A DNA stretch of 61,461 nt from a virus. Both the position numbers and the translations under genes were made by a program. Below are positions 680-42,620 of this stretch, piece by piece. The stretch lies in IMG/VR virus record IMGVR_UViG_3300002231_001522, positions 1-61,461 of that record; one strand, given 5' to 3'. How positions within the stretch are numbered: the stretch's first letter is position 1; each line of letters begins with the position of its first letter. The notes under the pieces were generated by a model, which saw nothing but the letters and a program-made list of their open reading frames with translations, did not search any database and had not been told where the DNA came from.

Positions 680-685
680 ATAAAT

Positions 686-3898: not shown

Positions 3899-3900
3899 TA

Positions 3901-6973: not shown

Positions 6974-7155
6974 AGACAAAAACAACACCTATATTAAATA
7001 GTAGGTTAATATCTTCAAAAAAAAGTGATCCTGTTGTATATAATGTGGAAAAAACTTTGAGGAATTTATTATATAAACAGTCTTTGGATATGGATAAGAT
7101 GGGAAAAAGAATTACAGAAATGAAAAAAGACATTAAGCGTTTACGAGGTGATTAA
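6961..7155 (+). CDS. Small basic coiled-coil protein, TTG start
   Basis: A 64-residue protein starting at TTG 6961 inside the end of the preceding gene, with AAGGTAGGA upstream. The C-terminal half is amphipathic and strongly basic (KMGKRITEMKKDIKRLRGD), consistent with a short coiled coil. Its place between the PKD tail protein and the ejection-type proteins suggests a small structural or chaperone role. No family is recognised. The in-frame overlap and binding site make it a plausible gene rather than noise. Confidence 0.6.
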   Translation: MPRIETKTTPILNSRLISSKKSDPVVYNVEKTLRNLLYKQSLDMDKMGKRITEMKKDIKRLRGD

Positions 7156-7157
7156 TA

Positions 7158-8981
7158 ATGACTACAGAAAGATTTACTCAGCAAGTTGATCGTATGAATA
7201 ATAAACAAAATTTTGAACCAAGAATGTTAAATGTTCAAGGGCGACAACCTCAAAATCAAGGTTATAATACACAACAACCTAATAGTTATAGATATGCACA
7301 ACCATTACCGGCTCCAAGTGTTCCCACACGTCCACAACCACAACCACAAACCCGAACTCAACAACCGATACAAGCTGCACCACTATCAACGCAGACACAA
7401 CCTTCTCAATCAAAAGGTGCACCCACTCCAATTGATCCAAACGCTGTGTTAAGGCAAGGGCTTGAGGAAATATCAAATATAGCCTCTGGTGATAGTCCTA
7501 ATTTAGATCGTCTATTAGAAAAGTATCTAAACAGAGGTTCAAATGTTCAAGCGGCACAACAAGCTGGAATGCAACAACAATTTAATCAAGCTGGTTTAGA
7601 TCCTACTCAAAGTGCTACTTTAAGTGCTGATGCACAACGTAGATTTAATATGCAACAAGGGGAAACCACAGGACAAATAGCACAAGAACAGGGGCGTGAA
7701 CAATTTCAAGCAATTCAACAATTACCACAATTAGCACAACAAGCCCAACAGATGGATATTTTGAAGAAACAAGATTTACAGAATCAATTTAATAAGTTAA
7801 TTGAGCTTGGTGGGAGCAAAAATTTAATGGCGGCAGAGAAAATCGGAAGAGAAGTATTTGGCGTTGATACAGTTGATATGCATAAAATAGAAGAAATCGG
7901 TATTAACAGAATGCTTGCAGATTATGCTTCAATGCCTGGTTTTGATGTAAACGAGGCAGTACAGTTAATGAAAGGTAATGGTGAATTAGATTATTTAGGC
8001 ATTACCGAAGAGGAGGCAAAAGCTAAACTCGAGCCTATTTATCAAAATAATAATCCTCTTTCATCTATTCAAACTGGATACCAGAACATGTTAGATCAAG
8101 GATTAATCTCTCAAAATGAATATGATAATGCTATGGCTGTTCAAAAATTTAATCTATTGAACCCACAAGGATTAGAAATTAATGATTCATTCTTAGTTGT
8201 CGATTCTGCCGGAAACGAAATTGGTAACTTTTTAGACGAGGGAGAGGCTATTCGGTTTTCTCAACAGCATGGGGGTAGTATTCAAAAGGGTAAAATGGTT
8301 AATTTGGCTGGTGAAACTCCAGAAAACTTACCTTCAGAAGGTGAAGTGTTTACTGATAAAGGCAGTTTGTATATTGTTGAAGGTGGTCAAAAGGTATTAG
8401 CTAAGCCTGATTTCGATGATCCATTTAGTTCTCAAAACAGACAGATACTTAACTATTATAAAGACCACCCTAATGCAGATAAAACTGGTACGGTTAAAGA
8501 CATAATAGATACTCAAACTAAGCATATAATGAATAATCCAAATGATTTGGATATGATTAGTAGCTATGACGATCCAATTTACAATGAAGTTATTAGGAGA
8601 AAAGGACTTACTAATTATAGTGATCTTGCGAATTTAAATAAAGATGAAACAGGTACGGGTTCGGGTTCAAAAATAACTATACCAGAGTTTGAAAATATGC
8701 CTCCAGATAAATTAATTACAGTTACCGATCCAACAGGAAGAAAAGTAATAGTTAGATTCGATGGAAAAGGTGTTCATGATGCTGTTGGTGATAATAAAAG
8801 TTGGTATAAATTTGTAGATCCTATAAGTGGCAGAGAGGTTACAATAGAAACTTCAAGGGATAAATCGTCTAAACAAAAAAGTGCTGTAGTATGGTCAGAA
8901 GCTACAAACACCAACAACACAAATGAAAACGATTCCAATAATGGGAACGTTAATTCAAGATTAGGGAGGAAAAAACAATGA
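7158..8981 (+). CDS. Gln-rich virion protein (putative ejection/internal protein)
   Basis: A 607-residue protein whose first 240 residues are very rich in Q, P and A (for example repeated QPQPQTRTQ and QQAGMQQQF segments). A more ordinary alpha/beta body follows, with a Ser/Asn-rich C-terminal tail. Such composition is typical of internal virion or ejection proteins that unfold through the tail. It starts three bases after the previous stop and overlaps the next gene (ATGA). No enzymatic motif is visible. Confidence 0.55.
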   Translation: MTTERFTQQVDRMNNKQNFEPRMLNVQGRQPQNQGYNTQQPNSYRYAQPLPAPSVPTRPQPQPQTRTQQPIQAAPLSTQTQPSQSKGAPTPIDPNAVLRQGLEEISNIASGDSPNLDRLLEKYLNRGSNVQAAQQAGMQQQFNQAGLDPTQSATLSADAQRRFNMQQGETTGQIAQEQGREQFQAIQQLPQLAQQAQQMDILKKQDLQNQFNKLIELGGSKNLMAAEKIGREVFGVDTVDMHKIEEIGINRMLADYASMPGFDVNEAVQLMKGNGELDYLGITEEEAKAKLEPIYQNNNPLSSIQTGYQNMLDQGLISQNEYDNAMAVQKFNLLNPQGLEINDSFLVVDSAGNEIGNFLDEGEAIRFSQQHGGSIQKGKMVNLAGETPENLPSEGEVFTDKGSLYIVEGGQKVLAKPDFDDPFSSQNRQILNYYKDHPNADKTGTVKDIIDTQTKHIMNNPNDLDMISSYDDPIYNEVIRRKGLTNYSDLANLNKDETGTGSGSKITIPEFENMPPDKLITVTDPTGRKVIVRFDGKGVHDAVGDNKSWYKFVDPISGREVTIETSRDKSSKQKSAVVWSEATNTNNTNENDSNNGNVNSRLGRKKQ

Positions 8982-9499
8982 ATATGGCAGCAGCAGCATT
9001 GCCAATAGTAGAGGGAATATTAGGATCCGGGACTTCCGATGGAAAAAACGATTCTAATAAACAATCATCGCCTAAAAAAAGTAACGCTCCGTATGGAAAC
9101 GAGCAAAGTGATGAAGAAAATCCAGATATGAGTAACTCTGGCATGATAAGTGATGTACTTTCAATGATTCCTGGAACTCTTGATTTTATCACATCTCTTT
9201 CTAACATGTATTCGCAAAAAAATGCCGCTAAAGAATCCCAAAGACGGCAAACAATTGCGGAAAAAATGTACATGGAAGCAATGAATCGTAAACGTAATGA
9301 AATATTATCACAAAAAAGAATGCAAGCACAAGGACGTTTGTATAATAAAGGTAGAGTAGCGATGTCAGATAAAGAACGTCAACATAGTAATGCCTTAACC
9401 GAAAAAGGAATGCAATTTCAACAGACATTAAACCTTATGAATAGAAAACCTGCGTTGAGGAACTCATTAATTTCTCAAATGCAAGGAGGGGCATTATGA
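8978..9499 (+). CDS. Putative ejection/internal virion protein, small
   Basis: A 173-residue protein with a strong GGGAGG ribosome binding site; its ATG overlaps the preceding TGA. It has an N-terminal Ala/Gly-rich hydrophobic segment (MAAAALPIVEGILGSG), a low-complexity charged linker, then a basic helical C-terminal half (AKESQRRQTIAEKMYMEAM). This layout resembles T7 gp14-like and P22-like ejection proteins that sit ahead of very large internal proteins. The assignment is by architecture and gene order. Confidence 0.5.
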   Translation: MNMAAAALPIVEGILGSGTSDGKNDSNKQSSPKKSNAPYGNEQSDEENPDMSNSGMISDVLSMIPGTLDFITSLSNMYSQKNAAKESQRRQTIAEKMYMEAMNRKRNEILSQKRMQAQGRLYNKGRVAMSDKERQHSNALTEKGMQFQQTLNLMNRKPALRNSLISQMQGGAL

Positions 9500-10812
9500 G
9501 AAATCCTTTTACAGATCCAATTGATAATCCTTTTAAAGATGTTCCCGATTTAAGTGGTGTGAGTAATGCTGTTGGTGAATTATCAAAAGCAGGTATGAAT
9601 ATTGCAAATAGAGACCGTGCCGAAGAATATCGGCAGAAATTACTTACTCAACAAAGAATAAATGGTATTAAGGCAGCGTCTAAAAACCCAAAATTGGTGA
9701 AAGATGCTTACATGGCTTTGAATAGTATAATTAATGATGGTAAATCAAAAGCATTACGAGAAGGCGATAATGTAAAAGTAAGATACTATGATCTTCTTGC
9801 ACAAAAAAATAATACTCACATTGAATCATTAGATAATGCTCCTTATATGTCTCCTCAAAAAGTTGAAGAAAATATGAAAAAGATACAATCATCTTATAAG
9901 GATATAGCTAATTTTGAAGACAGAGGAATTACTAATGAAAAGTTAAAAGGATATGGTGTTGATACACAAGAAAAAATGTATAGTGAAGCCGCCACAAAAG
10001 ATCCAAGCCTAACTGTAGATCAAATTAAAAATTCAACCGCATTCCATGGCTTAGAAAAACAAAGTGATATTGTAAAGCAAGATATAAATGCTGGTAACCT
10101 TGATTTGAAAAAACGAAGAGAAGCTCGTCAAAACAAAAAAGATCTTCAGAAAGCCAGATCAGAGCAAAACAAAATTGCCCAAAAAAATAAAGAGCTAAGA
10201 TTGAATGCTATCAGACTAAAGGGTGATTATAGTAGTGACTTTGTGAATGCAGCAGAAAAAGACTTTGATATACAAGATAGAATAAGAAATATTAATTATG
10301 ACATTGAAATAATTAAAGATGATTTGTCAAATAGAAAATATGAAGATCCGACAAAGGCACAACTTCTAATTGACAAGAAAAAAGACCAAATATTTACATA
10401 TAATTGGCAATTAAGAAGTCTCAGGAATAGTAATACGGGTTTAGCCACTATTAATGCAGACCTTGATGAATTCCTCAACTCTGAAACTCCAACTTCTATA
10501 AAAAAAGCAAATACAGATAGACAGGAAAAATTGGCAGTTATACAAGACGAAAGTGCAAATTTAAGACCTTTGTATGTACCAAAACAGCATAAACAAGCAT
10601 TAACTAATATTATAACTACTAAATTACCCAAACTAAAAATAGCACAAGAAAAAGCAAAAAAAGGAACAAAGCAATACAAGCAATTAAACAATATTGTATA
10701 TTTTCTTGATACTGTAGATAAATTAAAAGACCATCCGGATCAATTAAATAGTTATTTTAATAGTTTAAAAGGTACAGATAATGAAGGGTTATTAAAACAG
10801 CTTGGATTATAA
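9496..10812 (+). CDS. Putative ejection/internal virion protein, helical
   Basis: A 438-residue, mostly helical and highly charged protein with an ATGA overlap to its upstream neighbour and AAGGAGG before the start. The N-terminus (NPFTDPIDNPFKDVPDLSGV) is a short polar peptide with a repeated NPF element. The body has long Lys/Glu/Gln helices consistent with coiled coils. Position immediately before the giant polyvalent gene supports a role as an internal or ejected protein. No family is recognised. Confidence 0.5.
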   Translation: MRNPFTDPIDNPFKDVPDLSGVSNAVGELSKAGMNIANRDRAEEYRQKLLTQQRINGIKAASKNPKLVKDAYMALNSIINDGKSKALREGDNVKVRYYDLLAQKNNTHIESLDNAPYMSPQKVEENMKKIQSSYKDIANFEDRGITNEKLKGYGVDTQEKMYSEAATKDPSLTVDQIKNSTAFHGLEKQSDIVKQDINAGNLDLKKRREARQNKKDLQKARSEQNKIAQKNKELRLNAIRLKGDYSSDFVNAAEKDFDIQDRIRNINYDIEIIKDDLSNRKYEDPTKAQLLIDKKKDQIFTYNWQLRSLRNSNTGLATINADLDEFLNSETPTSIKKANTDRQEKLAVIQDESANLRPLYVPKQHKQALTNIITTKLPKLKIAQEKAKKGTKQYKQLNNIVYFLDTVDKLKDHPDQLNSYFNSLKGTDNEGLLKQLGL

Positions 10813-10825: not shown

Positions 10826-13800
10826 ATGCCAATTAATGAGAATGCTTTTGATTTTTTACTCGATAGTAATAAAACTGATACACAAAATCTATCTATTGAT
10901 GAAAATGCTTTTGATAATTGGATAGAAGAACCAGTACAGCCAGTCGAGAAAGCTAAAACTGATATTGGCACAGGTATTGTAGAAGGGTTAACAGCAGGAA
11001 TTAATAAAATTCCAGAATCTGATATAGAAATTAATCCAGAATTAAAAGCATTAGGTGAAAAAGCTGATATTTTTCTTCAAGGACAACGAAACAAAAAACT
11101 CGAAAATCTCTCTGATAGAATAGCAGAGAAGAATGGAACTAAACAAACCTTTGAGCCTGTTGATGTAAAACCATTTAAAACAAAAACAAAAATTCCCCTT
11201 GGTACTCCAGCCGAATTACGACCAGTAATGAAGGAGATTATAGAAAAACAAGGTCAAGATTATACCCAGCCATTAGCTGGTCCCGATGTTTCATTTTCCG
11301 ATAGATTAAAAGCAAATAAATTGGCTTTTAAGTCTGGTTTGGAAAAACACAAAGCTAAAGTAATTGGTGGTGATATTCCTCCTTATACCGGCGAACGTAA
11401 ATCTGATGGTAAAAAATACCAAGATGCTATTGATAGAGAAGACACAATTGGTGAACAAACTCTTTCCTCAAAGGGTGTAAAACCAGAACAATTCCAATAT
11501 TCAGGAGTTTACCCCACTAATGAATCTCTTAAACGTCTATTGGGCGATACCGATAATGATACTAAAAACTCAGTAAGATCTTATTTAGCAAGAAATGAAC
11601 AATCAAAACATATAGAGAAAGCTAAAACTCTTGGCGAAGAATCTGAAAAATTATATCCATATTCTGATAGAATGGAAAAATTATATGCTACTTTTGATCA
11701 AGCTATGGGTGTAAAAGGTGACAAAACATTAGGCTCTAAAAACATTAGAGAGATACAAAAGGGTTGGGATGCAGGATATGTTGATAAAGAATTAAATAAA
11801 ACCATAGCTACACTTGCGATGGTTTCTCCACAAAAAGCGGCAGAATTACTTCCAGTTGTAAAAGATCTACAGGGTGATATTCAGGAATCTATTGATACCG
11901 GCGACAAAGGTGTTTTTGTCAAAGGAGCACAACGATTAGCTCGTACATTAGAGCCTATGATGGAGGCTATGACCAAACAAACAGCAGCGATGCTTATACC
12001 TGGAGTTGGTCAAACTGTTTTAGTTCCATTGGCAGTTGCCAGTACATTTAATGAGTTTTCAGGTATGGAAACAGGGAGTGTTTTTCAACAATTAGTTGAA
12101 AATGGTGTCGAGCCAGAAGTAGCCGCTTCCATATCTGTACCCGAAGGCTTAATAAATGCCGCAATAGAATCTTTCCAAGTAGCAGAACCTATAAGTGCTG
12201 GTGTGGAAACTTTTGGTCATACACTCTCTTCTGCGATGTCAAAGAATTTGGCTAAATATGTAAAGAATAAAGGAATAAAAAAAGCATCTCAAATACCTAA
12301 AGATTTAATAAAACATGCTTTTCCTGAAATAATAGAAGAGACTATACAGGGTGGTATAACTGATGGAACGATAGAAGGTACTAAAGCAAATCAAATGCTT
12401 GGTAAAAACGGATTTAATACGATTAAGGCGGCAGGTAAAGGTGCATTAATGAGTGGGTTAACATCTACACCTGATATGATTGCTATTACAGCGTTAGGCA
12501 TGATGACCGGTGGACTTGCTGGTAAATTAAAAGGAGTTTCTTTAGGAAATAATAAAAACCATTATAATAAAATCAAATCAATTTCAGAAAGCAATAAATC
12601 TAAAGAAGAAAAAATTAAAGAATTAAAAAGATATTTACAAGATAATCCTAAATTCATGGAATCAATAACAAGTGATATAGCCGACAATATTATGGATAAC
12701 GTTATTGATTTAGATGTTAAAGCTAAAAACCCGTTAAAGTCTGAGCCTCAACAAGCGAAAGAAACAATACAACCTCAACAAGCGAAAGAAACAATACAAC
12801 CTCAACAAGCGGAAGATCTAAAAACACCTCAACAAGATAATGTTGAACCTTTACCAAGGAAATTAGAAAATGACCTCCAAACAGAAACAATCACGCCGGA
12901 GTCTGGAGAACAAAAGCAGATTGATACTAACGCAAGCAAAAGTGTTGATGGGAATGTTGACCAAGAAGGAAAAAACCAATTCCGAAGCGAACCTTCTACA
13001 ATTCAAAATGAAATTGCCACAAAAGAAGAGGAACCACAGAGCCCTACAAATGTAAGTAGTGCTGGTGAAATTGTTATAAATGAAGCCGCTTTTGATGATA
13101 TTTTAAATGATATTGAAAGTTCTACTGAAGATGTCGAGAATAATGTTAAAAAAGAAAGTAATAAAAAAATCAAAACTATTCGTGATGTTAAAAAACTCAC
13201 TTATGATACTATAGACAAAGATGCAAACATAAGAACTAAAAAAGATAAAAATGGCGAATTAGTTCCGGTATCAAAGAATAAAGAGATTACTGCAATTGCA
13301 GAAGATGGTTTTGAGCATAATTTTGATGTTACTGTGAACAAAAAAAATAAAGTAATTACTAAAGATAAAGGATTAACTGAGACTGGACAAGAGCAATCTA
13401 CTCTTAATGAGATTAATCGTTTAAAAGATGATGTAAAAGTTGAATTAGAAACTAATCCGAAATTGGTAAATTTATCTAATAAAGAGAAATATTTTATTGG
13501 TAAGCAATTAAACAAAGCATCAGAAATAGATAAAGCTCTACCAAAATTAGATGTTTTTATCAAAAAAGCTAAAACGCTAATAAAAGGAGAGATTAATGTT
13601 AAACAAAAAGCAAATATTGGAAAAGGCGAAAAAGGTGTTACCTCTGGACAAAAAGTCGAACCTATTGGAGAACCTAAACCAAATAGAAATGTCAGCAAGG
13701 CAAAATCCGGAAGTGGGAAAGAAGCTATTAATGAGGCTATACCCGTACCTGAATCTGCAATTGAAGACAATCGCACAAGCAATGAAGTACAGCCTAATAC

Positions 13801-16800
13801 AAAAAGAGTGGAAGGACTCGGAGCCGCTGGAAACAATGGGAGAACTTCACAAGGGAATACAGGAAAGCGACTGGTATCAGAAACAAATGGGCGAAATGAT
13901 ATTACCAACAGGAAGCAACCTATTCAACCTAAAAGTTCAGAAAGTATAAAACAATCTGAGCCAGAACAACTAAAAACACCTGAAAGTACACAGAAGAAAC
14001 CGATACCATCGGGCAATCATGCAGATCCAACTCCTTCAAGTGACCAGATAAAAGCCGGTAATTACAAGAAAAAACACCTTAAACGTGATGGAATGGATAT
14101 ATCTATCGAAGTTGAGAAAGGTGAAAATCGTGAGGGAATAGACAAAAACGGTAAGAAGTGGTCAACAACAATGACCTATGATTATGGGTATATAAAAGGT
14201 ACGGTTAGTAGTGATAAAGAGCATGTTGATGTTTTTATAAAATCGGATGATGCAGACTTGTCAAAAGTTTTTGTCGTTAATCAAACGAATCCAGATAAAT
14301 CATACGATGAACCAAAAGTTATGCTGGGTTTCAATGATTCTAAAGAAGCCGAAACTGCATATCTTGAAAATTACGAAGATGGCTGGAATAATTATAGTGA
14401 TATTGTAGAAATGTCCATGTATGATTTTAAGAAATGGGCTTATGATCCGAATAAAGCCGGTCCAGCAAAAGTAGAAGTAATCGATGAAAAAATAAAATCT
14501 GAGAATGATAATTATAATTTAACTAACGCAAAACCTATTTCTCTTAAACGTACAGCCAGAAAAAACATTAATAAACAAGTTAAAGATATTCTTGCGAAAG
14601 TTAAAGATGATCCTACATACAAAGTAACCGATGCCGAAAAGAATATATTAAGACAATATACAGGATTAGGAGGGCTTGATGAGGCTGTGACAGGGAGACG
14701 ATGGCAGCATTATACTTCTTATCCTGTCGTAAAAGCTATGTATAATGCTATAGACCAGTCAGGTTTTACGTATAAAAAAGCATTGGAGCCAGCAGTAGGA
14801 ACTGGTAATTTTGTAGGTATGAGACCAAACGCTAATTGGGTAACGGTAGATTTAGATAAAACAAATCACCAAATTATGGAAATTCTTTACCCTGATGCTA
14901 ATAATTACAATATGAGTTTTGAAAGATTATTGATAGATGACTTTGACCTAATAATCTCAAATGTTCCTTTCCAAGCTGATAGAACAAAAACGCCAGTATC
15001 ATATCGTCCTGAAATTAAAGCATTGCATGATTACTTTTTTGTGGAATCCTTAGATAAAGTAAATGACAATGGAATTGTTGCATTTATATCTTCAACTGGA
15101 ACTATGGATAAAATGGATAGTTCAGTAAGAAAAGAGATAATTAGCAAGGCAGATGTTTTAGGAGCTTACAGACTATCTTCAGAGGCTTTTGAGGACAATG
15201 CTTCTACAAGTGTAATTACAGATATAGTATTCCTTCAGAAGAGACCTAACGGTGTTGAGAGTATTCACAAAGATGACAATGAAGCATTTGTTGATAGTGT
15301 TCCATATAGTGATAATACTGAGTTTAATATAAATAAATATTATAAATTACATCCTGAGAAGATTTTGGGCGAGGCTTCAGTTGGTAAAATTCAAACAGCA
15401 ATGGGTAAAGAGGGGCTTACTGTAACGGGAAAACCGGATCTTTCAAAAATAGTAATACATCCACATAAATATGAGAATGCTGAAAAAAGAACATTCAAAT
15501 TTAAAAAGAATGGAAAATACCCAGCAAAGACAAAAGAAATGGACAAATGGATTAAAGATAATAATGCTATAGCATATCCTGATTATGAATTTTATTTAGA
15601 TGAAAATGGGAAAATGGTATTAGAATCAAACCGTAAATTTAATCTTGCCTCTGAAGTTATTGATGGAACATTGTGGATTAAAGATGATGTTGTGGAATTT
15701 TCTGATACTGATGTGAAATATGCAGTTTTCAAGAAAGCAGAAGGAGTACAAGTAAACAAAATTGATGCACTAATGGATATAGAAGATGCCGCTATTAAAT
15801 TTCAAAATACCCAAGATGATAATATTGCTAATAAAGGAATTCAACAGGTAAATGACTATCTTAAAAAATATGGTAATCCACATAAAGATAAAATATTAAG
15901 AAAATATTCTAAGACTACTGATACCGAAACTCTTTATTTAAGATTAGCTTCATTTATTGACAAAGAAGGTCGCCCAGCCGATGTGTTTTATGAGCAAACT
16001 CGGTATAAATCTGGTTTTTTGAAAGTAAATGAAAAAACAGGGTTTAATGAAAGAGCATTAGCGTCCGAAAACCGAAACGGTATTATAAATATTTCAGAAA
16101 GTGAATTTATCTCTAAAAATGATATTAAAAAGTTAAATGAAAACTATAGTATATTAGGAAAAGATAAAGATGGTAATTATATCTATCAAAATAAAGTGCT
16201 TTATCTTTCTGGTAACATCTTTGATAAAATTGATGCATTAAATGAATTAATTGTAGCAGAAACAAACAAAAGTCTTCAAGACAAAATGAAGATTCAGCTT
16301 GATGAGTTATATAAAATACTACCAAAGCAAGACAACCTTGAGTCTATTAATATAAATGGTAATGAGGAATGGTTTTCTGATTTTGCAGATATGCTGCCAT
16401 TCCATATTGCGAAAAATGGAGCAGGAAAATATGATATAGAACCACTTACACCAACAGAACTTTCGGAGCTTGATATAAAAGGTGATGAAAAATGGCTTAC
16501 TGAATTTGATAACATAATGGAGTATAAAGTTAGATTTCCAGCATATGGAAGACGAAGGATTAACAAAAAGACAGGAAGTGAAGCAAGAAAAGTCCGGAAA
16601 GCATTACTTATTTATTATAGATATTTAAACACAGGTAGGCTCATTAATTTTAGACCTAAAAGTGAATCAATTTCAACATACAAAGAAAACTTAAATAAGG
16701 CTTATGAAACAATAGCAAAAATCAAAAATGCAATAAAATCTAAAATAGCAAGTAGTGAAAATTTATCGGCTGTAGAAAACAAATACAATAGGCAATATAA

Positions 16801-19800
16801 TAGTCATGTAAGCCCAAATTATATGAAAGCGTCTTATTTAATTCAAGATGTAATAGACGAAATGGAAACTAATCTTTCTACTCCTGGAAAAAAAGGCAAA
16901 CTAAGACAAAACCAAATAGAATGGATGACACAAGCATATTTGGAAGGTGTTAGTCTAAATAGTCACGATACTGGCGGTGGAAAAACTTTTGCCGCAATTG
17001 GGTTAGCTCGAATATTAAAAAAACGAGGGTTAGCTAAAAAACCTCTTTTTGTTGTTCCTCCTAAAACTCTTAACAAATGGATACGTGAAACTCGGTTATT
17101 ATTCCCAGATGCTAAAATTGTTAATCTTGGTGAACTATACGCAAAAAAAAGAACAGAAGCGTTACTAAACATTGCGAATAAGAATGCAGATTTCACATTT
17201 ATTTCACATGAAGGACTTGGGCAAATAGCCCTAAAGTATGAAAATTTAAAAAGATACATTAATGATATTTATTATACACAAATTAAAGGTTCAGCAGAGG
17301 GGCTCTCCAATAAAAAAATAATAAAAGAACTTGAATCTTTTGAACAATACAAAGAAGTTATGAAGAATATAAGTAGTAAGAATGACCAAAACATTATTTG
17401 GGAACGATTGGGCTTTGATGCTATGATTACCGACGAAGCCCATGCTTTTAAAAATGTTGGTGTCAATAGTAGATTGTCAAATAAAGGTGTTGGTAAACCG
17501 TTTAGCGTGAAGTCTGGTGGTAAATTAGACTCTGTAAGATCGTATGATTTTAGATATAAAACAATAAATATATTGGAAAACAATAACAATAAAAATGTTT
17601 TTCTTCTCACAGCAACACCAACAGGTAACAAACCATTAGAAGTATATACGATGTTAGCACACATGGGAAATATTTGGGAGCAATATGGAATACACAATGT
17701 GATTGATTTTGCGAATATGTTTTATGAATTTAAAACTATTGTACCAGCAACAGGTGGAGAGCCTAAAGAAGTATTAGCTAAAATGATTAATCTTCACAAG
17801 TTACATTCAATTTTAGATAGATATGTTTCTTATTATCCAATGTCAGAAATGAAATGGATAAAAGTACCAGCGAAAAGCACACAGTTACACCATCTTGGTA
17901 GAAGTGATGAAGTTAAAGATGTTATGAACGAATTGACAGCCAGAGGTCAGATGATTAAAGGTCAATACAGGAAAGGAACAGGCGATGACACTTACACTTC
18001 TATATATGTACATGGGCGTAACGCCTCTGTTGATCCTCGTCTTTATCCTGGTGGAGATGCCGAAGCACTACATGCCACAGTATATCATAAAAACCGGTCT
18101 AAAAATTTGAGCAATGATAAAATCCAATATGCAATAAATTTAATGATTAAAAGGAAGAAAAATAATCCAGATATTGGACAATTGGTATTTATAGATAATT
18201 ACGGGAAACATTTATCAAAACAAAAGACATTAGAGGGTGAGCCTGTTATTTCTGAAGATATACAAATGGAAATTAGAAATGAACTAATAAAGAGGGGTGT
18301 ACCGTCCGAACAAATTGCTATTGTCAGGGATAAAATATTTGATCCTAAAACAAAAAAATTTGTATCAAAAGACGACGAAAAAGGTAGGAAAAAATTTCAA
18401 GAGATACAAGATGCTTACCAAAGTGGTGATATTAGATTTATGATTGGAACTACTAAAAGTATGGGTGAAGGTATTAACCTTGATTATAAAACAGGAAGTG
18501 TATATAATTTAGATTTTCCACATAAACCTGGTGAAGTTGATCAACGTCTCGGCCGTGCAGTTAGAGCTGGTAACTCTTTGAACAATGTAGATGTACATTT
18601 TTTCTTGATGGGAGGGACATTTGATGCTCTCTCTTATGGTATGATAGCTAAAAAACGTGGCTGGAACAGAGCTATATGGGAAGACAAAGCAGATGTACTT
18701 GATGTTACAGCTGAAATGTCAGAGGGCGATACTCCTTCAGACAAGGAAATTGAGATAGCGTTGATTGTTGATCCTATTGAAAGAGAAAAACGTAAAGTTA
18801 AATACAATATAGATAATCTCAATAAAACAATTCACGAAAACAATGAGGAGCTAATAAACATACGAGCCTCAAATAGATATTATGACTCAAAAATTGCTAT
18901 AATTAATGCTAAAAATATCGAGTTAAATAATACAATTCAAAAGACACAAAAGATTATGGGAACTGAAGAATTTAAAGAAAATAACAAAAAATCGCAAGTT
19001 AAAATTGATAAAATAAATACAGAAATTGCAAAAACTGATGCTAAAGAAAAAGGAAAAATAGCAACACTTGAAACTCGAAAGAATAATCTTAAGCAAAGAA
19101 TGACTACTGATAGCCGGAGAATACAAAATGCAGAAAATCATATTAAGGCTAATGATAAATCTATTCGTGATTACAAAGCGATTCAAGAAGAAGATGCAGA
19201 GCGTGGTAATAAACTAAGGGAGAAGTCTCTTGAAATACAGATAGAAAGAGAAGCTATTGAAAATAAATATTATCAAGATGGTAAATTTTCTATAAGTGAA
19301 GATATGGAAAAACAACTTATTGCACAAGATGAACTTGATAGAATAGGTTCAGAAACTGAGATCACAAAAGAATATTTTCTTACTGATGAAGCAAAAGATC
19401 AATATATTGTAGAACACCCTGAACTTGAAGATATGAGAAAAAATAAAGGGTCAATATCAATGAATCATCATGTTTCAAATAAATATTTACCTAAAGAAGT
19501 CATTGAAAATATTAAAATAATAGAATCCGATACGTTTACGTTTAGAGGGGAAAAACGCAGACTTGACAGTAACGGGCTAATTATTACAGATATGGATAGT
19601 GTCACAGTTGTATTGAAACCAGGGTTATCGGAACAAGAAAAATCTTCAGTTTTAACACATGAATTAATCGGTCATTTTGGCTTCTCTAATTTATTAAGGA
19701 ATGATCCAAAAATCTACAAGACTGTGATGGACATATTTGAAAAAGATGTAGATTTAAAAGAAGCTATAAGAAGAGAGTATAAAGAAGACCTTGCTCAAGC

Positions 19801-22800
19801 AGAACTTTCAGGTGGAATAGATGCGTATAATGATGTTCTTTTGGGCGAATGGCTTGCCCATGCTATCGATGTGAATGATAAAAAGAATTTTATCCAAAAG
19901 ATTTATGATGCAGTTAAAAAATTGCTCATTAAAATGGGATGGGCAAAACCTTCTAATATTGAAGAATTAATGCCAGTTCTTGTCCGTGAACTCAAAAATA
20001 CGAAAGCTCATAACTTTTCACCTTCTGTCAAAGTAACAAATGCGACTAACAAAGGATATGATAGTGCAATCCGATTTATGAAAAAGGTCGAAGTAAAAAG
20101 ACTAATGTCAAAAGATGAGTTAGTTAAAGAAAATTTAGTATTAGAGGAACAAGCCAAAAAAGACAAAAAACGAATTTATACTATTGATAGAGCAAAACAG
20201 AAAGTTATACAAGGTGTTAGAGACCATAAAATTAATGTAAAAAATTATCTTAAATACGCCAGAGAATATTCACGATTGGCTCTTGATCCAGGATTAAATG
20301 ATACTTTTAGAGCCAGACTTAGCACAATGTTAAATTCCCCAATATGGAAAAAATTAGATACTCCAAAACGGCAAGAACAAGCGAAATTACAACTGTTGAA
20401 TTTAATTAATCATCTTAATAGTATTCAGAGGCGGAAAGGTTCTATTGATAAGTTATTTAAAACTCTTAAACGTTCTAAAAGAGCAGAGGGTAAATCTAAA
20501 AAAGCTATAAGAGACATGCTTAAAGACGTTAGGAATAAACTAACGAATGGGAAGGGTAGATTAGATGCTAAATTTATCAACGAACTTGAAACTACACAAA
20601 TAAAAGAACTTACTAATGAGATTAATAAGATCCTTGCATATTCCAAAGGTGTTCAAGATGATTTTATTGCAGGAAGAATAGAAGATTTTGAGAAAAAAGC
20701 CGCTATTTGCGAAACAAACTTACGTAATACCCAGCCCAGTAAGGTTAAAGAGCTACCAAGAGGTGCTGGCGATAGCTTATTCCGAAAAGTATATGATTCT
20801 ATAGTTGGGATTGGAGCATCGACTACAGAGACAATTACAGAAGAATTAGACGGAATGGATAAAACAGAAGATAATGCAGTTATGTCCGATGTGTTTTTTC
20901 AAGCATTCCATGAAGCATCAAATGGTAAATTAAAATTCATGCAAGATTTGGAAGATAAATTCAACAAACAATTTAAGATTAATGATATAAAGGATTTGTC
21001 TGTCGTGTTTCATAGCAGTATGAAGGATATTTCTAAAATAGATAAACCTTATACTGTTACAGATAAAAATGGTGATGAACATACAATACATCTTTCTGGA
21101 GGACATAGAATTTCTTTATATCTTCATGGATTAAATGAGCATAACACAAAAGCATTAAAAGACGGAATTGCATTTGATTATGATTACGACAAGAAAAATC
21201 CTATTGAATTATCTGAAGAATCTATAGAAGAACTTACAAGCCCTGATATGTTGTCAGATACCGAACGGAAAATTGCAGATTTTATGTATAGTTTTCTAAA
21301 TGGTGAAGCTAAAACCGAATTAGAACGGGCATCTGATAGGATTAATGGTTATCCAATGGAATTAGTAGATAGTTACTTTCCATTACATAGAATAAACGTT
21401 TATAGAGATTTTCTAATAAAAGGTAGTAGTGATTTGTCTGGAACTGTGAATCAAGTATTCATAGAAGGAGCCGGAAGTTTCAAAGAACGAAAAAAAAACG
21501 CAGGTGGTTCTGTGTTAATTGAAGATGCTTTTTCTGCATTTTACAATTCTGCACTACTAACAGCAAGTTATTCCAATTATGCAATGCCTTTAAGATACGC
21601 AAAGCAAATGATTCACCATTTAAGACCGGTAGCAAGAGAAACACACCGGACGAAATATTTAGATGCATTGCAAAGATATGTTAAAAGAATTGAAGGTTCT
21701 AATAGAATAGTCGGTTTGGAATCTTATTTAAAATCAATAGTAGGTAACGTAGCGGCTAATGTCTTAGGTGGTAATATACCTGTTTTTTTAAGACAAGCTG
21801 GTTCTTATGCTTTAATAGCTACTGAAATTGATTCAAAATATTGGAGCAAAGCCGCTACAATGATACCATTAACTCAAAATGGTGGAAAACAATTAAGAGA
21901 TATTACTAAGAGATATTCTCCATTTTTTAGAGCAAGGTTTGAAAGTAACCTAATTAATGCGGAATTGGGACAACGGGCAGCCTCTCAACAAATTGGAAAA
22001 ACTTTTGGTAAAAAACTGCCTAAAACAGAATATGCAACACTTCCCATTCAATGGATGGATAGAGCAACTGTCACTCGAATTATACAAGCAGCTAAATTAA
22101 AAATTGAAGATACTACTAATTTAAAAGATGATGAAAAGTGGAACGCAATAGTTAAATTAGCTGAAGATATAACTATCCGTACCCAGCCAATGTATTCTAT
22201 TGAATACCGTTCAGAGATGGGGGCAAATCCTGCATTATGGGCGAGATTAACCTTTATGTTTACGTCTGCAACAAATGCGGTTTATAATACAATAAAAAGA
22301 ACATGGCTAAGATATAAAAGGTCTAATAGAACTCCTAAAGATAAACTGGACTTATTAGGTCGATTATTTGCTTGTTGGTTTTCTACATCATTACTAATGA
22401 CAGCTATTGATGAAGTAGCCGATTTTTTAAAAGGTAAATGGGACAGAGATGTTTGGAAACGTATTAATAGATTAATATCAAGGACATTCTCACCGTTTTA
22501 TTTTGGTGATAAAGTTGCAGGAATCGTTATTGATTCAATAAACTTTTTAAAAGGTGATGATTCATTTAAGCAAACAAACAATAGAGATCGTAATTTACTA
22601 AGTGTCATAAATCAAAACATTTTTCAAGGTTTTGGTGATGTTTATAGGTCATACAAAGACAAAGATCTACAAGCCGGCGATTATCAAAGACTGTTAAAAG
22701 GATCTGCCGAAATAGGTAATGCTGTCAGTATTTTAGCATTAAAAGGGTCAGTTCCTGTTTTAAATACATACCGATTGTTTGACGAAAGACTTAAGCCAAA

Positions 22801-23107
22801 ATGGCAAAAGTCAAAAGCAGATATTGAAGGTGAAAAAATTGGATACAAATCTAAGAAACAATTTATATTTTCTTACAAAGGATCAAAATATAAATTCACA
22901 AAAGGAGGTTATGAAACAGCCTCAAAGCAAGTATCTGAATATGAAAATAGAAAATTTGATTCAAATGTATATAAAAATCTTAAACCAGATGAAAAACTAA
23001 AGTATATTAAAGGTATAAATAGAGATTCATGGAGTGACTGGAAGAAAAAAAATAGGCACAAACTCCAACAGTTTACATTTATATACAAAAAGAAAGGTGA
23101 TGATTAA
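10826..23107 (+). CDS. Giant polyvalent virion protein: pyrophosphatase-like, N6-methylase, SNF2 helicase, zincin and LPD38-like regions
   Basis: A single 4093-codon gene with no internal stop. Visible order: N-terminus with repeated I(N/D)ExAFD motifs; hydrophobic/amphipathic stretches near 365-415 and 540-575; low-complexity linker with PQQAKETIQ repeats (about 641-665); an inorganic-pyrophosphatase-like domain (about 1065-1220, with TMTYDYGYIKG and EHVDVFIKSDD); an N6-methylase (motif I LEPAVGTGNF at 1320-1329, motif IV NVPF at 1379-1382); an SNF2-type helicase (Walker A HDTGGGKT at 2047-2054, DEAH 2203-2206, TATP 2262-2265, DQRLGRAVR 2572-2580); coiled coils (about 2640-2850); a zincin-like motif HELIGH at 2945-2950 with a downstream GEWLAH; and a helical C-terminus resembling the LPD38 region of large polyvalent proteins. 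In this family the protein is carried in the particle and injected, the methylase/helicase resembling P1 DarB anti-restriction proteins. Which activities work here is unknown. Confidence 0.9.
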   Translation: MPINENAFDFLLDSNKTDTQNLSIDENAFDNWIEEPVQPVEKAKTDIGTGIVEGLTAGINKIPESDIEINPELKALGEKADIFLQGQRNKKLENLSDRIAEKNGTKQTFEPVDVKPFKTKTKIPLGTPAELRPVMKEIIEKQGQDYTQPLAGPDVSFSDRLKANKLAFKSGLEKHKAKVIGGDIPPYTGERKSDGKKYQDAIDREDTIGEQTLSSKGVKPEQFQYSGVYPTNESLKRLLGDTDNDTKNSVRSYLARNEQSKHIEKAKTLGEESEKLYPYSDRMEKLYATFDQAMGVKGDKTLGSKNIREIQKGWDAGYVDKELNKTIATLAMVSPQKAAELLPVVKDLQGDIQESIDTGDKGVFVKGAQRLARTLEPMMEAMTKQTAAMLIPGVGQTVLVPLAVASTFNEFSGMETGSVFQQLVENGVEPEVAASISVPEGLINAAIESFQVAEPISAGVETFGHTLSSAMSKNLAKYVKNKGIKKASQIPKDLIKHAFPEIIEETIQGGITDGTIEGTKANQMLGKNGFNTIKAAGKGALMSGLTSTPDMIAITALGMMTGGLAGKLKGVSLGNNKNHYNKIKSISESNKSKEEKIKELKRYLQDNPKFMESITSDIADNIMDNVIDLDVKAKNPLKSEPQQAKETIQPQQAKETIQPQQAEDLKTPQQDNVEPLPRKLENDLQTETITPESGEQKQIDTNASKSVDGNVDQEGKNQFRSEPSTIQNEIATKEEEPQSPTNVSSAGEIVINEAAFDDILNDIESSTEDVENNVKKESNKKIKTIRDVKKLTYDTIDKDANIRTKKDKNGELVPVSKNKEITAIAEDGFEHNFDVTVNKKNKVITKDKGLTETGQEQSTLNEINRLKDDVKVELETNPKLVNLSNKEKYFIGKQLNKASEIDKALPKLDVFIKKAKTLIKGEINVKQKANIGKGEKGVTSGQKVEPIGEPKPNRNVSKAKSGSGKEAINEAIPVPESAIEDNRTSNEVQPNTKRVEGLGAAGNNGRTSQGNTGKRLVSETNGRNDITNRKQPIQPKSSESIKQSEPEQLKTPESTQKKPIPSGNHADPTPSSDQIKAGNYKKKHLKRDGMDISIEVEKGENREGIDKNGKKWSTTMTYDYGYIKGTVSSDKEHVDVFIKSDDADLSKVFVVNQTNPDKSYDEPKVMLGFNDSKEAETAYLENYEDGWNNYSDIVEMSMYDFKKWAYDPNKAGPAKVEVIDEKIKSENDNYNLTNAKPISLKRTARKNINKQVKDILAKVKDDPTYKVTDAEKNILRQYTGLGGLDEAVTGRRWQHYTSYPVVKAMYNAIDQSGFTYKKALEPAVGTGNFVGMRPNANWVTVDLDKTNHQIMEILYPDANNYNMSFERLLIDDFDLIISNVPFQADRTKTPVSYRPEIKALHDYFFVESLDKVNDNGIVAFISSTGTMDKMDSSVRKEIISKADVLGAYRLSSEAFEDNASTSVITDIVFLQKRPNGVESIHKDDNEAFVDSVPYSDNTEFNINKYYKLHPEKILGEASVGKIQTAMGKEGLTVTGKPDLSKIVIHPHKYENAEKRTFKFKKNGKYPAKTKEMDKWIKDNNAIAYPDYEFYLDENGKMVLESNRKFNLASEVIDGTLWIKDDVVEFSDTDVKYAVFKKAEGVQVNKIDALMDIEDAAIKFQNTQDDNIANKGIQQVNDYLKKYGNPHKDKILRKYSKTTDTETLYLRLASFIDKEGRPADVFYEQTRYKSGFLKVNEKTGFNERALASENRNGIINISESEFISKNDIKKLNENYSILGKDKDGNYIYQNKVLYLSGNIFDKIDALNELIVAETNKSLQDKMKIQLDELYKILPKQDNLESININGNEEWFSDFADMLPFHIAKNGAGKYDIEPLTPTELSELDIKGDEKWLTEFDNIMEYKVRFPAYGRRRINKKTGSEARKVRKALLIYYRYLNTGRLINFRPKSESISTYKENLNKAYETIAKIKNAIKSKIASSENLSAVENKYNRQYNSHVSPNYMKASYLIQDVIDEMETNLSTPGKKGKLRQNQIEWMTQAYLEGVSLNSHDTGGGKTFAAIGLARILKKRGLAKKPLFVVPPKTLNKWIRETRLLFPDAKIVNLGELYAKKRTEALLNIANKNADFTFISHEGLGQIALKYENLKRYINDIYYTQIKGSAEGLSNKKIIKELESFEQYKEVMKNISSKNDQNIIWERLGFDAMITDEAHAFKNVGVNSRLSNKGVGKPFSVKSGGKLDSVRSYDFRYKTINILENNNNKNVFLLTATPTGNKPLEVYTMLAHMGNIWEQYGIHNVIDFANMFYEFKTIVPATGGEPKEVLAKMINLHKLHSILDRYVSYYPMSEMKWIKVPAKSTQLHHLGRSDEVKDVMNELTARGQMIKGQYRKGTGDDTYTSIYVHGRNASVDPRLYPGGDAEALHATVYHKNRSKNLSNDKIQYAINLMIKRKKNNPDIGQLVFIDNYGKHLSKQKTLEGEPVISEDIQMEIRNELIKRGVPSEQIAIVRDKIFDPKTKKFVSKDDEKGRKKFQEIQDAYQSGDIRFMIGTTKSMGEGINLDYKTGSVYNLDFPHKPGEVDQRLGRAVRAGNSLNNVDVHFFLMGGTFDALSYGMIAKKRGWNRAIWEDKADVLDVTAEMSEGDTPSDKEIEIALIVDPIEREKRKVKYNIDNLNKTIHENNEELINIRASNRYYDSKIAIINAKNIELNNTIQKTQKIMGTEEFKENNKKSQVKIDKINTEIAKTDAKEKGKIATLETRKNNLKQRMTTDSRRIQNAENHIKANDKSIRDYKAIQEEDAERGNKLREKSLEIQIEREAIENKYYQDGKFSISEDMEKQLIAQDELDRIGSETEITKEYFLTDEAKDQYIVEHPELEDMRKNKGSISMNHHVSNKYLPKEVIENIKIIESDTFTFRGEKRRLDSNGLIITDMDSVTVVLKPGLSEQEKSSVLTHELIGHFGFSNLLRNDPKIYKTVMDIFEKDVDLKEAIRREYKEDLAQAELSGGIDAYNDVLLGEWLAHAIDVNDKKNFIQKIYDAVKKLLIKMGWAKPSNIEELMPVLVRELKNTKAHNFSPSVKVTNATNKGYDSAIRFMKKVEVKRLMSKDELVKENLVLEEQAKKDKKRIYTIDRAKQKVIQGVRDHKINVKNYLKYAREYSRLALDPGLNDTFRARLSTMLNSPIWKKLDTPKRQEQAKLQLLNLINHLNSIQRRKGSIDKLFKTLKRSKRAEGKSKKAIRDMLKDVRNKLTNGKGRLDAKFINELETTQIKELTNEINKILAYSKGVQDDFIAGRIEDFEKKAAICETNLRNTQPSKVKELPRGAGDSLFRKVYDSIVGIGASTTETITEELDGMDKTEDNAVMSDVFFQAFHEASNGKLKFMQDLEDKFNKQFKINDIKDLSVVFHSSMKDISKIDKPYTVTDKNGDEHTIHLSGGHRISLYLHGLNEHNTKALKDGIAFDYDYDKKNPIELSEESIEELTSPDMLSDTERKIADFMYSFLNGEAKTELERASDRINGYPMELVDSYFPLHRINVYRDFLIKGSSDLSGTVNQVFIEGAGSFKERKKNAGGSVLIEDAFSAFYNSALLTASYSNYAMPLRYAKQMIHHLRPVARETHRTKYLDALQRYVKRIEGSNRIVGLESYLKSIVGNVAANVLGGNIPVFLRQAGSYALIATEIDSKYWSKAATMIPLTQNGGKQLRDITKRYSPFFRARFESNLINAELGQRAASQQIGKTFGKKLPKTEYATLPIQWMDRATVTRIIQAAKLKIEDTTNLKDDEKWNAIVKLAEDITIRTQPMYSIEYRSEMGANPALWARLTFMFTSATNAVYNTIKRTWLRYKRSNRTPKDKLDLLGRLFACWFSTSLLMTAIDEVADFLKGKWDRDVWKRINRLISRTFSPFYFGDKVAGIVIDSINFLKGDDSFKQTNNRDRNLLSVINQNIFQGFGDVYRSYKDKDLQAGDYQRLLKGSAEIGNAVSILALKGSVPVLNTYRLFDERLKPKWQKSKADIEGEKIGYKSKKQFIFSYKGSKYKFTKGGYETASKQVSEYENRKFDSNVYKNLKPDEKLKYIKGINRDSWSDWKKKNRHKLQQFTFIYKKKGDD
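12746..12815 (+). repeat. 27-bp in-frame tandem repeat in the polyvalent gene
   Basis: Two full copies and a partial third of a 27-bp unit start at 12746, 12773 and 12800 and encode PQQAKETIQ repeats. They lie in the low-complexity linker between the N-terminal region and the pyrophosphatase-like domain. Copies 1 and 2 are identical in DNA, which suggests recent slippage expansion. Confidence 0.9.
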
Positions 23108-27274: not shown

Positions 27275-27303
27275 TTGACTTACAACATTTGTTGTGGTAT
27301 ATT
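27275..27303 (+). promoter_or_regulatory. Sigma70-type promoter of the early operon
   Basis: TTGACT at 27275-27280, a 17-bp spacer, and TATATT at 27298-27303, followed 37 bases later by the start of the RecE-like gene. It is the clearest + strand promoter in the window and drives the recombination/replication operon. Confidence 0.8.
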
Positions 27304-27309
27304 ACAACA
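27282..27309. promoter_or_regulatory. Operator-like inverted repeat plus third half-site
   Basis: ACAACA (27282-27287), two bases, TGTTGT (27290-27295) form a perfect dyad lying wholly in the promoter spacer. A third ACAACA (27304-27309) directly follows the -10 box. A protein bound here would block RNA polymerase. The XRE-type protein encoded at 29095 in the same operon is the natural candidate, which would make the operon self-regulated (inference). Confidence 0.65.
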
Positions 27310-27340
27310 TAAGGAATTAACATTAACGAAAGGAATATTT

Positions 27341-28261
27341 ATGTTGGGAAGAAGTGTACCTACAGATAATAACGGTGAGCCGTTGCAAGATGGAATATAT
27401 TTCAATGTTCCTGATGCTGAGTATCGAGATTGGGATTGTTTCTCATATTCAATGATAAAGAGTCTTATCATATCGCCTAAACATTTTTTAAATAATCATA
27501 AAAACTTTAAGCCCACAGAAGTGATGGAATTGGGTAATATTTTTGAGACTGAACTACTTGAGCCAGAGAAAATGTCAGAAGTTTGCAGGCAAACTCCAGA
27601 TAAAGCACCAAATGCGAAAGATTTGATGGTCCCGTTTTCACTACGTGTGCCAAAACATAGAGAAATCCTTCAAGAATATAGAGATGGCGGCTATATTCCT
27701 GTCTTTCCAGAAACGATGTCTAAAGTTAAAAAAATGGTTCAATCTGTTAAAACTCTAAAACATCACAAAAAATACCTATTTAAAGGGCAAGCACAAGTTT
27801 CGTTACTTTGGACTTGCCGTGATACTGGTATCCGTTGTAAAGCCCGTTTAGATGTCTATAATCCGCAGATAAACAATGTAACTGATGTAAAGACTACCTC
27901 GTCGGCTTTTGAGGAAAATTGGCGTACTCAGATAGGTAGAATGTATTATCATTGTCAGGCGGCACATTACTTATCTGGATTAGATCATTTACTTAGTGGT
28001 GGTCAAATATTCAGTTGGACTTTTGTAGTTGTTGAAAATGAAGAACCTTACGGGGCAAGAATTTTTCATTTAAGACCTGGTAGTGTATGTACTGGTGCGG
28101 AAACGGTAGGAATTTGTAAAAGAATATATAAAGAAATTCAGGATATTCCGGAAGAGGAATGGCCATGTTATCCTGTTGATGAAGAAATTGATATTGACAT
28201 TAGACCATATTTATTAAGAAGTGACGTTGATGATATGGGAGAGGGAGAAGGTGTATTATAA
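27341..28261 (+). CDS. RecE-type PD-(D/E)XK exonuclease
   Basis: A 306-residue protein starting at ATG 27341, seven bases after AAAGGA; the frame opens earlier but without a site. The region CKARLDVYNPQINNVTDVKT holds the nuclease core, with D171 and the D182-V-K184 pair. The N-terminal 'SYSMIKSLIISPKHFL' matches the start of RecE / exodeoxyribonuclease VIII-like phage nucleases. The enzyme would resect double-stranded ends 5'-3' to give single strands for the annealing protein encoded next, with which it overlaps by one base (TAATG). This is the first gene of the operator-controlled operon. Confidence 0.85.
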   Translation: MLGRSVPTDNNGEPLQDGIYFNVPDAEYRDWDCFSYSMIKSLIISPKHFLNNHKNFKPTEVMELGNIFETELLEPEKMSEVCRQTPDKAPNAKDLMVPFSLRVPKHREILQEYRDGGYIPVFPETMSKVKKMVQSVKTLKHHKKYLFKGQAQVSLLWTCRDTGIRCKARLDVYNPQINNVTDVKTTSSAFEENWRTQIGRMYYHCQAAHYLSGLDHLLSGGQIFSWTFVVVENEEPYGARIFHLRPGSVCTGAETVGICKRIYKEIQDIPEEEWPCYPVDEEIDIDIRPYLLRSDVDDMGEGEGVL

Positions 28262-42568: not shown

Positions 42569-42620
42569 TTCAGTCCCTCTCCCTGTTAATAGACTCGTTA
42601 ATGACATTTTTACTCCTTTT

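What the first reader, a model, noticed from the sequence alone, without database searches (positions are those of the whole stretch)
10826..23107. 4093-residue polyvalent virion protein combining DNA-modifying, motor, hydrolase and protease-like domains
Seen: motifs of a pyrophosphatase-like domain (about 1065-1220), N6-methylase (1320-1382), SNF2 helicase (2047-2580), zincin-like HELIGH (2945) and an LPD38-like C-terminus in one open frame. Known: proteins of this layout are described as large polyvalent proteins co-injected with DNA, and P1 DarB is an anti-restriction relative. Inference: this one protects incoming DNA and may also cleave or remodel a host target. It takes up about one fifth of the genome.
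Basis: partly seen in the sequence, partly recalled or inferred. Interest (0 to 1): 0.75.

Follow-up and report, generated by a model that had tools for sequence, protein, structure and literature searches.

The report
Giant virus-carried DNA-protecting phage protein
This phage spends one fifth of its genome on a single 4093-residue protein, very probably packed in the virus particle and sent in with the DNA, that combines a DNA-methylating motor, a pyrophosphatase and a metal-dependent protease; the protein type is known, but its short repeated N-terminal tag looks like an address label that has not, as far as I could find, been described.

Summary
The 4093-aa ORF is real and is 20.0% of a complete 61,362-bp phage genome (99-bp terminal repeat). 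It is a DarB-type polyvalent protein: InPase (E 1.5e-47), gamma-class adenine methylase with NVPF (as in P1 DarB), intact SNF2 motor, then a zincin. HELIGH is HEXXXH, not HEXXH; it falls in a HEXXXH sub-clade found at the same place in 16 of 139 relatives (74 more have HEXXH) and homologous to the HEXXH type (99.4%, E 5e-22); that clade was described in 2017. LPD38 is not detectable; the C-terminus is phrog_28077 with YFPLHRI (PLxRFG type) and a hydrophobic segment. The JC1 relative (4515 aa, 22.1% of genome) is virion-borne by published mass spectrometry, and gene order here mimics the gp14/gp15/gp16 ejection trio. Best reading: a giant ejection protein that protects entering DNA, probably cut into parts by its own zincin. 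Side finding: 29 of 96 such giants carry a lineage-specific tandem aromatic/acidic motif in the first 70 residues (0-4 of 96 elsewhere), a candidate capsid-addressing tag; here NENAFD-type copies at 4, 25 and 752. New member of a known kind.

The parts
10826..23107 (+). 4093-aa giant polyvalent (DarB-type) virion protein
   Evidence: DarB phrog_10089 E 8e-144; 20.0% of genome
10832..10861 (+). N-terminal tag copy 1, INENAFDFLL (residues 3-12)
   Evidence: tandem repeat test p 0.004 in first 70 aa
10895..10924 (+). N-terminal tag copy 2, IDENAFDNWI (residues 24-33)
13076..13105 (+). third tag copy, INEAAFDDIL (residues 751-760), after a low-complexity linker and before InPase
   Evidence: scores 35 against a shuffled-ORF maximum of 23
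11813..12400 (+). N-terminal helical/hydrophobic domain (residues about 330-525) shared with several relatives; holds hydrophobic segment 387-405
   Evidence: iterative HMM to L013, L010, L047, L111, L064 and others; hydropathy 1.77
14042..14440 (+). InPase domain PF18823 (residues 1073-1205); acidic signature D1130-K-E1132-H-V-D1135
14510..15373 (+). gamma-class DNA adenine methylase (1229-1516): GLGG 1280, HYTS 1295, GTGNF 1325, NVPF 1379
15371..16780 (+). conserved linker region between methylase and motor (1516-1985), part of the contiguous block shared with nearest relatives
   Evidence: BLAST block about 1210-2780 at 29-38% identity
16778..18745 (+). SWI2/SNF2 ATPase motor (1985-2640), motifs I, II, III, V, VI intact
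18785..19465 (+). charged, probably coiled-coil spacer (2654-2880)
   Evidence: composition K+R 0.19, D+E 0.20; fold inferred
19505..20005 (+). zincin-type metallopeptidase (about 2894-3060): H2945-E2946-LIG-H2950, third ligand E3008
   Evidence: models
20573..22504 (+). C-terminal module (3250-3893), phrog_28077, with YFPLHRI at 3517 and hydrophobic segment 3843-3861
9496..10812 (+). 438-aa protein directly upstream, gp15-like size, with its own N-terminal tandem motif NPFTDPID/NPFKDVPD
   Evidence: p 0.008
8978..9499 (+). 173-aa protein, gp14-like size and position
   Evidence: size comparison with PMC8954989
53981..56317 (+). terminase large subunit (start of the virion gene block, which wraps round the record ends)

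Best explanation
It is a DarB-type giant ejection protein. It is made late with the other virion proteins, is drawn into the head by its N-terminal repeated tag, leaves the particle with the DNA as the third and largest member of an ejection trio (173 aa, 438 aa, 4093 aa), and reaches the cytoplasm on or with the entering DNA. There the SNF2 motor tracks along the DNA and the coupled methylase marks adenines (or the complex simply shields the DNA), which blocks host restriction; the InPase clears pyrophosphate or a nucleotide-like defence signal; the HEXXXH zincin cuts the chain so that the activities separate. Shown here: ORF, domains, motif integrity, homology, gene order, tag repeats. Supported by published work on relatives: virion location. 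Inferred: delivery in this phage, DNA protection, self-cleavage, role of the tag and of InPase.
For: Homology to P1 DarB over methylase and motor and to hundreds of phage giants (540 phage records). All catalytic motifs of methylase and motor intact and invariant in nearest relatives. Position in the late virion block after terminase, portal- and capsid-position genes and two ejection-size genes; sizes match gp14/gp15/gp16-type trios (PMC8954989) and JC1 gp67/gp68/gp69 of 196/510/4515 aa, all three virion-associated by mass spectrometry, gp69 with 51 unique peptides (PMC9144972). Zincin at a conserved place: 90 of 139 giants have HEXXH or HEXXXH within about 700 aa of the motor, against about 1.5% in shuffles for each motif. 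N-terminal tandem tag in 29 of 96 giants; P1 DarB's first 30 residues are sufficient for capsid targeting (PMC9024508). C-terminal hydrophobic segment in 104 of 116 giants, as in gp16-type ejection proteins.
Against: No virion proteomics, host or phenotype for this phage. No peptidoglycan hydrolase domain at the N-terminus, unlike BcepIL02, SopranoGao and Atu_ph08, although P22 gp16 also lacks one. No sequence homology to T7 or P22 gp16 was detected. The InPase acidic signature has one D-to-E change. Zincin models of moderate confidence gave only non-significant PDB matches. The phage has a separate N6/N4 methylase gene (49372-50268) that could do the protective methylation alone.
Confidence: 0.74

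Rival explanations
1. The zincin is an effector: after injection it cleaves a host protein (for example a restriction or other defence component) rather than the giant chain itself.
For: Zincins act as effectors in other conflict systems and Iyer et al. 2017 leave this open (PMC5512222). The domain is retained across very divergent giants while flanks are swapped. Best structural neighbour is MATCAP, which acts in trans on tubulin (PMC10499314).
Against: P1 DdrB, with a C-terminal domain of this group, is processed before packaging (PMC5512222). Chains of this size with unrelated activities give an obvious self-cleavage rationale. The MATCAP match is not significant (E 0.3-0.8).
Confidence: 0.2
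2. Mainly a structural ejection protein: the enzyme modules are remnants and the real job is building the DNA conduit across the envelope.
For: Gene order and sizes of an ejection trio (PMC8954989); hydrophobic segments and a shared C-terminal YFPLxR element; zincin motif departs from HEXXH.
Against: Every methylase and SNF2 catalytic motif is intact and invariant in relatives; HEXXXH is a working motif in DPP III and TMCP/MATCAP enzymes (PMC3268031, PMC10499314) and recurs as a clade.
Confidence: 0.13
3. A non-virion protein made early after infection or in the lysogen that modifies phage DNA inside the cell.
For: Methylase-SNF2 fusions also occur in conjugative elements and bacterial chromosomes (PMC5512222), and this phage has another methylase gene.
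Against: It lies inside the late virion block, next to ejection-size genes, and the JC1 and P1 relatives are virion-borne (PMC9144972, PMC9024508).
Confidence: 0.07

Closest known systems
P1 DarB (2255 aa) and phrog_10089
   Same: Methylase with NVPF plus SNF2 motor, homologous over both; virion-borne in P1
   Different: No InPase, zincin or PLxRFG C-terminus counterpart was matched in P1 DarB; this protein is almost twice as long
Lessievirus (Bcep22-like) giants: BcepIL02 gp70 (4667 aa), JC1 gp69 (4515 aa, 22.1% of genome)
   Same: Same size class, place behind two virion genes, methylase-motor-zincin order
   Different: BcepIL02 starts with a transglycosylase and ends in LPD38; here neither is found, but InPase is present
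Atu_ph08 gp21, Mwe-JY07 WWT39866, BKO1-TP3 gp55
   Same: InPase, methylase and SNF2 motor in one chain of 4877-5553 aa
   Different: Atu_ph08 and Mwe-JY07 carry LPD39, and Atu_ph08 a cell-wall hydrolase at the N-terminus; 24-48% identity by domain
IMG/VR loci L008, L009, L010, L012, L088, L249 (nearest found)
   Same: Contiguous 1210-2780 block at 34-38% identity, methylase up to 54-55%
   Different: N- and C-terminal modules differ; L009 and L012 carry HEXXH and LPD38
Polyvalent MPTase, HEXXXH clade (Iyer et al. 2017, PMC5512222)
   Same: HEXXXH, glutamate in the following helix, phage polyvalent context
   Different: No difference of kind seen
T7 gp16 / P22 gp16 ejection proteins
   Same: Third and largest of three consecutive internal-protein genes; hydrophobic segments
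   Different: No sequence homology found; no transglycosylase; 3-7 times longer, with enzymes T7 and P22 gp16 lack

Membership tests
DarB-type methylase-SNF2 polyvalent proteins | Homology to P1 DarB over methylase and motor | tested here: met
   BLAST E 7e-20, 5e-16, 4e-11; phrog_10089 E 8e-144
DarB-type methylase-SNF2 polyvalent proteins | Gamma-class methylase motif I and N-[PV]-P-[FY]; GxGU motif upstream | tested here: met
   GTGNF 1325, NVPF 1379, GLGG 1280; NVPF also in P1 DarB
DarB-type methylase-SNF2 polyvalent proteins | Intact SWI2/SNF2 motor | tested here: met
   motifs aligned; invariant columns
DarB-type methylase-SNF2 polyvalent proteins | Carried in the virion | not testable with these tools
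   Only by analogy: JC1 gp69 and P1 DarB by mass spectrometry (PMC9144972, PMC9024508)
DarB-type methylase-SNF2 polyvalent proteins | Protection of DNA against restriction in cis | not testable with these tools
   Needs experiment
InPase PF18823 | Profile match above gathering score | tested here: met
   161.2 bits against 26.8
InPase PF18823 | Acidic metal-binding residues kept | tested here: inconclusive
   D1130, E1132, D1135 and D1161 align with D, D, D, D of relatives; one D-to-E change
Zincin MPTase of polyvalent proteins (HEXXXH clade) | HEXXXH motif | tested here: met
   H2945-E-L-I-G-H2950
Zincin MPTase of polyvalent proteins (HEXXXH clade) | Third metal ligand, glutamate in the next conserved helix | tested here: met
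   E3008 aligns with an invariant or nearly invariant E
Zincin MPTase of polyvalent proteins (HEXXXH clade) | Homology to the HEXXH members | tested here: met
   profile-profile 99.4%, E 5.2e-22 over 155 columns; the HEXXXH profile includes this protein
Zincin MPTase of polyvalent proteins (HEXXXH clade) | Zincin fold | tested here: inconclusive
   Models pLDDT 77 and 73; strands then HEXXXH helix; top PDB hit MATCAP probability 0.82-0.94 but E 0.3-0.8
Classical HEXXH zincin | HEXXH | tested here: not met
   HELIGH has one extra residue
LPD38 C-terminal domain (PF18857) | Profile or profile-profile match | tested here: not met
T7/P22 gp16-type ejection protein | Third gene of an internal-protein trio in the virion block | tested here: met
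   173, 438, 4093 aa in order; sizes of known trios in PMC8954989; the roles of the two smaller genes are inferred from size and place
T7/P22 gp16-type ejection protein | Sequence homology to T7 or P22 gp16 | tested here: not met
   No Pfam or PHROG hit of that kind on any segment
T7/P22 gp16-type ejection protein | N-terminal transglycosylase (T7 type only) | tested here: not met
   No SLT or hydrolase hit in residues 1-1058 at E 10

The most novel reading that the evidence does not exclude
Giant phage polyvalent proteins carry a general address system: two or three copies of a short, lineage-specific aromatic/acidic peptide at the very N-terminus (here NENAFD, repeated again at the next module boundary) that docks them, with avidity, to a symmetric internal partner such as portal or core protein. 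The sequence changes from phage to phage because it co-evolves with its partner. If so, the tag is a transferable label for loading other proteins into phage heads.
Probability: 0.5. Interest if true: 0.65.

Novelty: new member of a known kind. Interest (0 to 1): 0.45.

Why it matters
It gives a complete, uncultured phage in which one fifth of the genome is one probably ejected protein, and a corrected domain map for it. The comparison across about a hundred such giants yields two testable generalities: a zincin at a fixed place after the SNF2 motor (self-processing), and a lineage-specific tandem tag at the N-terminus that may explain how chains of 4000-6000 residues are loaded into heads. 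The second would turn an open question (how giant ejection proteins are packaged) into a simple fusion experiment.

Tried and rejected
Close relatives of the whole protein by exact peptide patterns in IMG/VR: none; alignments were needed. DNA-level match in phages: none. LPD38 tested four ways and LPD39 once, both rejected. phrog_28077 relatives in fetched records and eight bacterial genomes: only a short weak hit in one record, so the C-terminus stays poorly sampled. A C-terminal HMM from L020 did not reach this protein, though plain BLAST did weakly (E 5e-5). A fixed N-terminal motif (NPFD, AFD) shared by all giants: no clear enrichment; only the within-protein repetition is enriched. Same tag in other virion proteins of the same phage: not in general; exceptions are L056 and, loosely, the window's 9496-10812. 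My first motif scan with HEXXH silently missed this protein, which exposed the HEXXXH difference. Terminase as a handle to sister phages: no relative in IMG/VR by patterns. A tblastn against plasmids failed on length and was not repeated.

Full report
Observation. The ORF 10826-23107 is one uninterrupted frame of 4093 codons. The first and last 99 bases of the record are identical, so the record is a complete genome of 61,362 bp and this gene is 20.0% of it. Pfam finds InPase at 1073-1205 (E 1.5e-47), ResIII/SNF2 at 2030-2266 and Helicase_C at 2519-2582, all above their cut-offs. PHROGs gives DarB-like antirestriction over 1287-2304 at E 8e-144. Aligned with known phage giants, methylase motifs (GTGNF 1325, NVPF 1379) and SNF2 motifs (GGGKT 2050, DEAH 2203, TATPTGN 2262, GTTKSMGEGIN 2541, QRLGRAVR 2573) are intact. 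NVPF replaces NPPF in this clade and is also what P1 DarB has. None of this is chance.

Correction 1, the zincin. HELIGH has three residues between E and the second H, so it is HEXXXH, not HEXXH. In 139 non-redundant giants with the SNF2 motor, 74 have HEXXH within 700 residues after the motor (1.4% expected from shuffles; 0 of 139 in an internal control stretch). Of the 65 without it, 16 have HEXXXH at the same place, this protein among them, mostly with a shared context H-x-G and a later conserved E (1.5% expected). An alignment of 15 HEXXXH members has H, E, H invariant and the later E (E3008 here) invariant or nearly so. Profile-profile comparison with 16 HEXXH members: 99.4%, E 5.2e-22 over 155 columns. 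The HEXXXH clade was already described for polyvalent proteins (Iyer et al. 2017, PMC5512222), and HEXXXH is a working zinc site in DPP III (PMC3268031) and TMCP1/MATCAP (PMC10499314). Two AlphaFold2 models (pLDDT 77 and 73) place strands before the HEXXXH helix; their best PDB match both times is MATCAP (probability 0.82 and 0.94) but with E 0.8 and 0.3, so this is only consistent, not proof.

Correction 2, the C-terminus. LPD38 is absent by every test, although close relatives L009, L012-L017 and L256 have it and 5 of 10 relatives scanned with Pfam do. Residues 3250-3893 belong to phrog_28077 (E 4e-51) and resemble L020 weakly (E 5e-5). YFPLHRI at 3517 looks like the PLxRFG element seen in SopranoGao, Atu_ph08, Mwe-JY07 and L082; a YFPLxR-like pattern occurs in the C-terminal part of 35 of 116 giants and in 1 of 116 mid-protein controls. 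A hydrophobic 19-mer (mean hydropathy above 1.3) lies 150-700 residues from the C-terminus in 104 of 116 giants, at 3843-3861 here, against 25 of 116 in the whole long middle region.

Architecture and relatives. The nearest relatives share one contiguous block, about 1210-2780, at 29-38% identity, with different N- and C-terminal modules. InPase is present in only some of them. Other phages have the InPase-methylase-SNF2 chain too (Atu_ph08, Mwe-JY07, BKO1-TP3). Unlike BcepIL02 and SopranoGao, no transglycosylase is found at the N-terminus. So this is a new member of a known kind, with its own module mix.

Context. The virion block runs terminase (53981), portal-position, scaffold-position and capsid-position genes (named by place and size only), then wraps to 2-10812, with a 173-aa and a 438-aa gene directly before the giant. 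Known ejection trios have sizes such as P22 229/471/609 and T7 196/747/1318 (PMC8954989). In podovirus JC1 the proteins at the same three places are 196/510/4515 aa, all virion-associated by mass spectrometry, the giant with 51 unique peptides and 22.1% of the genome (PMC9144972). This is the main support for virion location, by analogy.

A side finding on the N-terminus. The protein starts MPINENAFDFLLD..SIDENAFDNWIEE, and a third copy INEAAFDDIL sits at 751 after a low-complexity linker. I asked whether this is general. For 119 non-redundant giants, the best ungapped 8-residue self-match in the first 70 residues was compared with shuffles: 30 have p at most 0.01 (25%), against 6 of 357 internal segments. 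After thinning to 96 representatives: 29 of 96 at the N-terminus, 0-4 of 96 at ten other positions. The repeated peptides differ between lineages (NPFDQVYK, LKPWEEY, MFDDLIP, PYESLED, GYGEDFYR, NDPFxDI and so on) but are rich in aromatic (16.8% against 7.6%) and acidic residues (25.4% against 16.3%), and the first copy mostly begins at residue 1-9. Other genes upstream (3.3%) or elsewhere (1.6%) in the same loci show far less. In this window, of 13 virion-block genes tested only the giant (p 0.004) and its upstream neighbour (NPFTDPID/NPFKDVPD, p 0.008) show it, and in L056 the upstream 194-aa protein carries the giant's own motif. The first 30 residues of P1 DarB suffice for capsid targeting (PMC9024508), though P1 DarB shows no evident repeat. 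A docking or packaging tag is the natural reading; it is an inference. Caveats: starts were taken as first ATG, the lineages are related to some degree, and three cases (L003, L152, L160) are longer repeats of about 30 residues.

Mechanism. Shown: domains, motifs, order, gene context, tag repeats. From known families: DarB-type proteins protect P1 DNA in cis (PMC5512222); whether by methylation, shielding or both is not settled to my knowledge. Inferred: delivery through the ejection conduit, self-cleavage by the zincin, and the InPase role (clearing pyrophosphate or a nucleotide signal, as proposed in PMC5512222). A host target for the zincin remains possible but has no specific support.

Verdict. 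The protein itself is a new member of a known kind; the N-terminal tag is the part worth following.

Noticed in passing
10832-10861, 10895-10924, 13076-13105; many loci: Lineage-specific tandem aromatic/acidic motif at the N-terminus of giant DarB-type proteins, 29 of 96 representatives against 0-4 of 96 elsewhere; candidate packaging tag.
   Followed up: partly
9496-10812: The gene before the giant has its own N-terminal tandem NPF[TK]D motif (p 0.008); in locus L056 the upstream 194-aa protein shares the giant's motif.
   Followed up: partly
1-99 and 61363-61461: Identical 99-bp ends, so the record is a complete (circular or terminally redundant) genome of 61,362 bp.
   Followed up: yes
49372-50268, minus strand: Separate N6/N4 DNA methylase (PF01555, E 4e-40); confounds any methylation test of the giant.
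   Followed up: no
50840-51613, minus strand: Class 3 lipase (PF01764, E 7e-26) in the non-structural block of a phage; unusual cargo.
   Followed up: no
27275-29091: Exonuclease VIII-like gene followed by a Rad52-type annealing protein (PF04098, E 2e-11): a recombination pair right after the virion block.
   Followed up: no
39424-39765 and 42269-42607, minus strand: Two small proteins look like paralogues (MRTAEQIDKIL.. and MRTESQIKKQL..) in a cluster of short genes.
   Followed up: no
36782-37027 and 41581-42261: Short proteins with repeated IYGDVxI/hydrophobic-turn units suggesting small beta-helices.
   Followed up: no
C-terminal 150-700 residues of giants in many loci; here 22352-22408: A hydrophobic segment is conserved in 104 of 116 giants, plus a YFPLxR element in 35 of 116; possibly a common membrane-entry module under different LPD names.
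   Followed up: partly
59850-61124: Protein at the major-capsid position has no tblastn match at E 1e-5 among 50,697 phage records, so the phage lineage is poorly sampled.
   Followed up: partly
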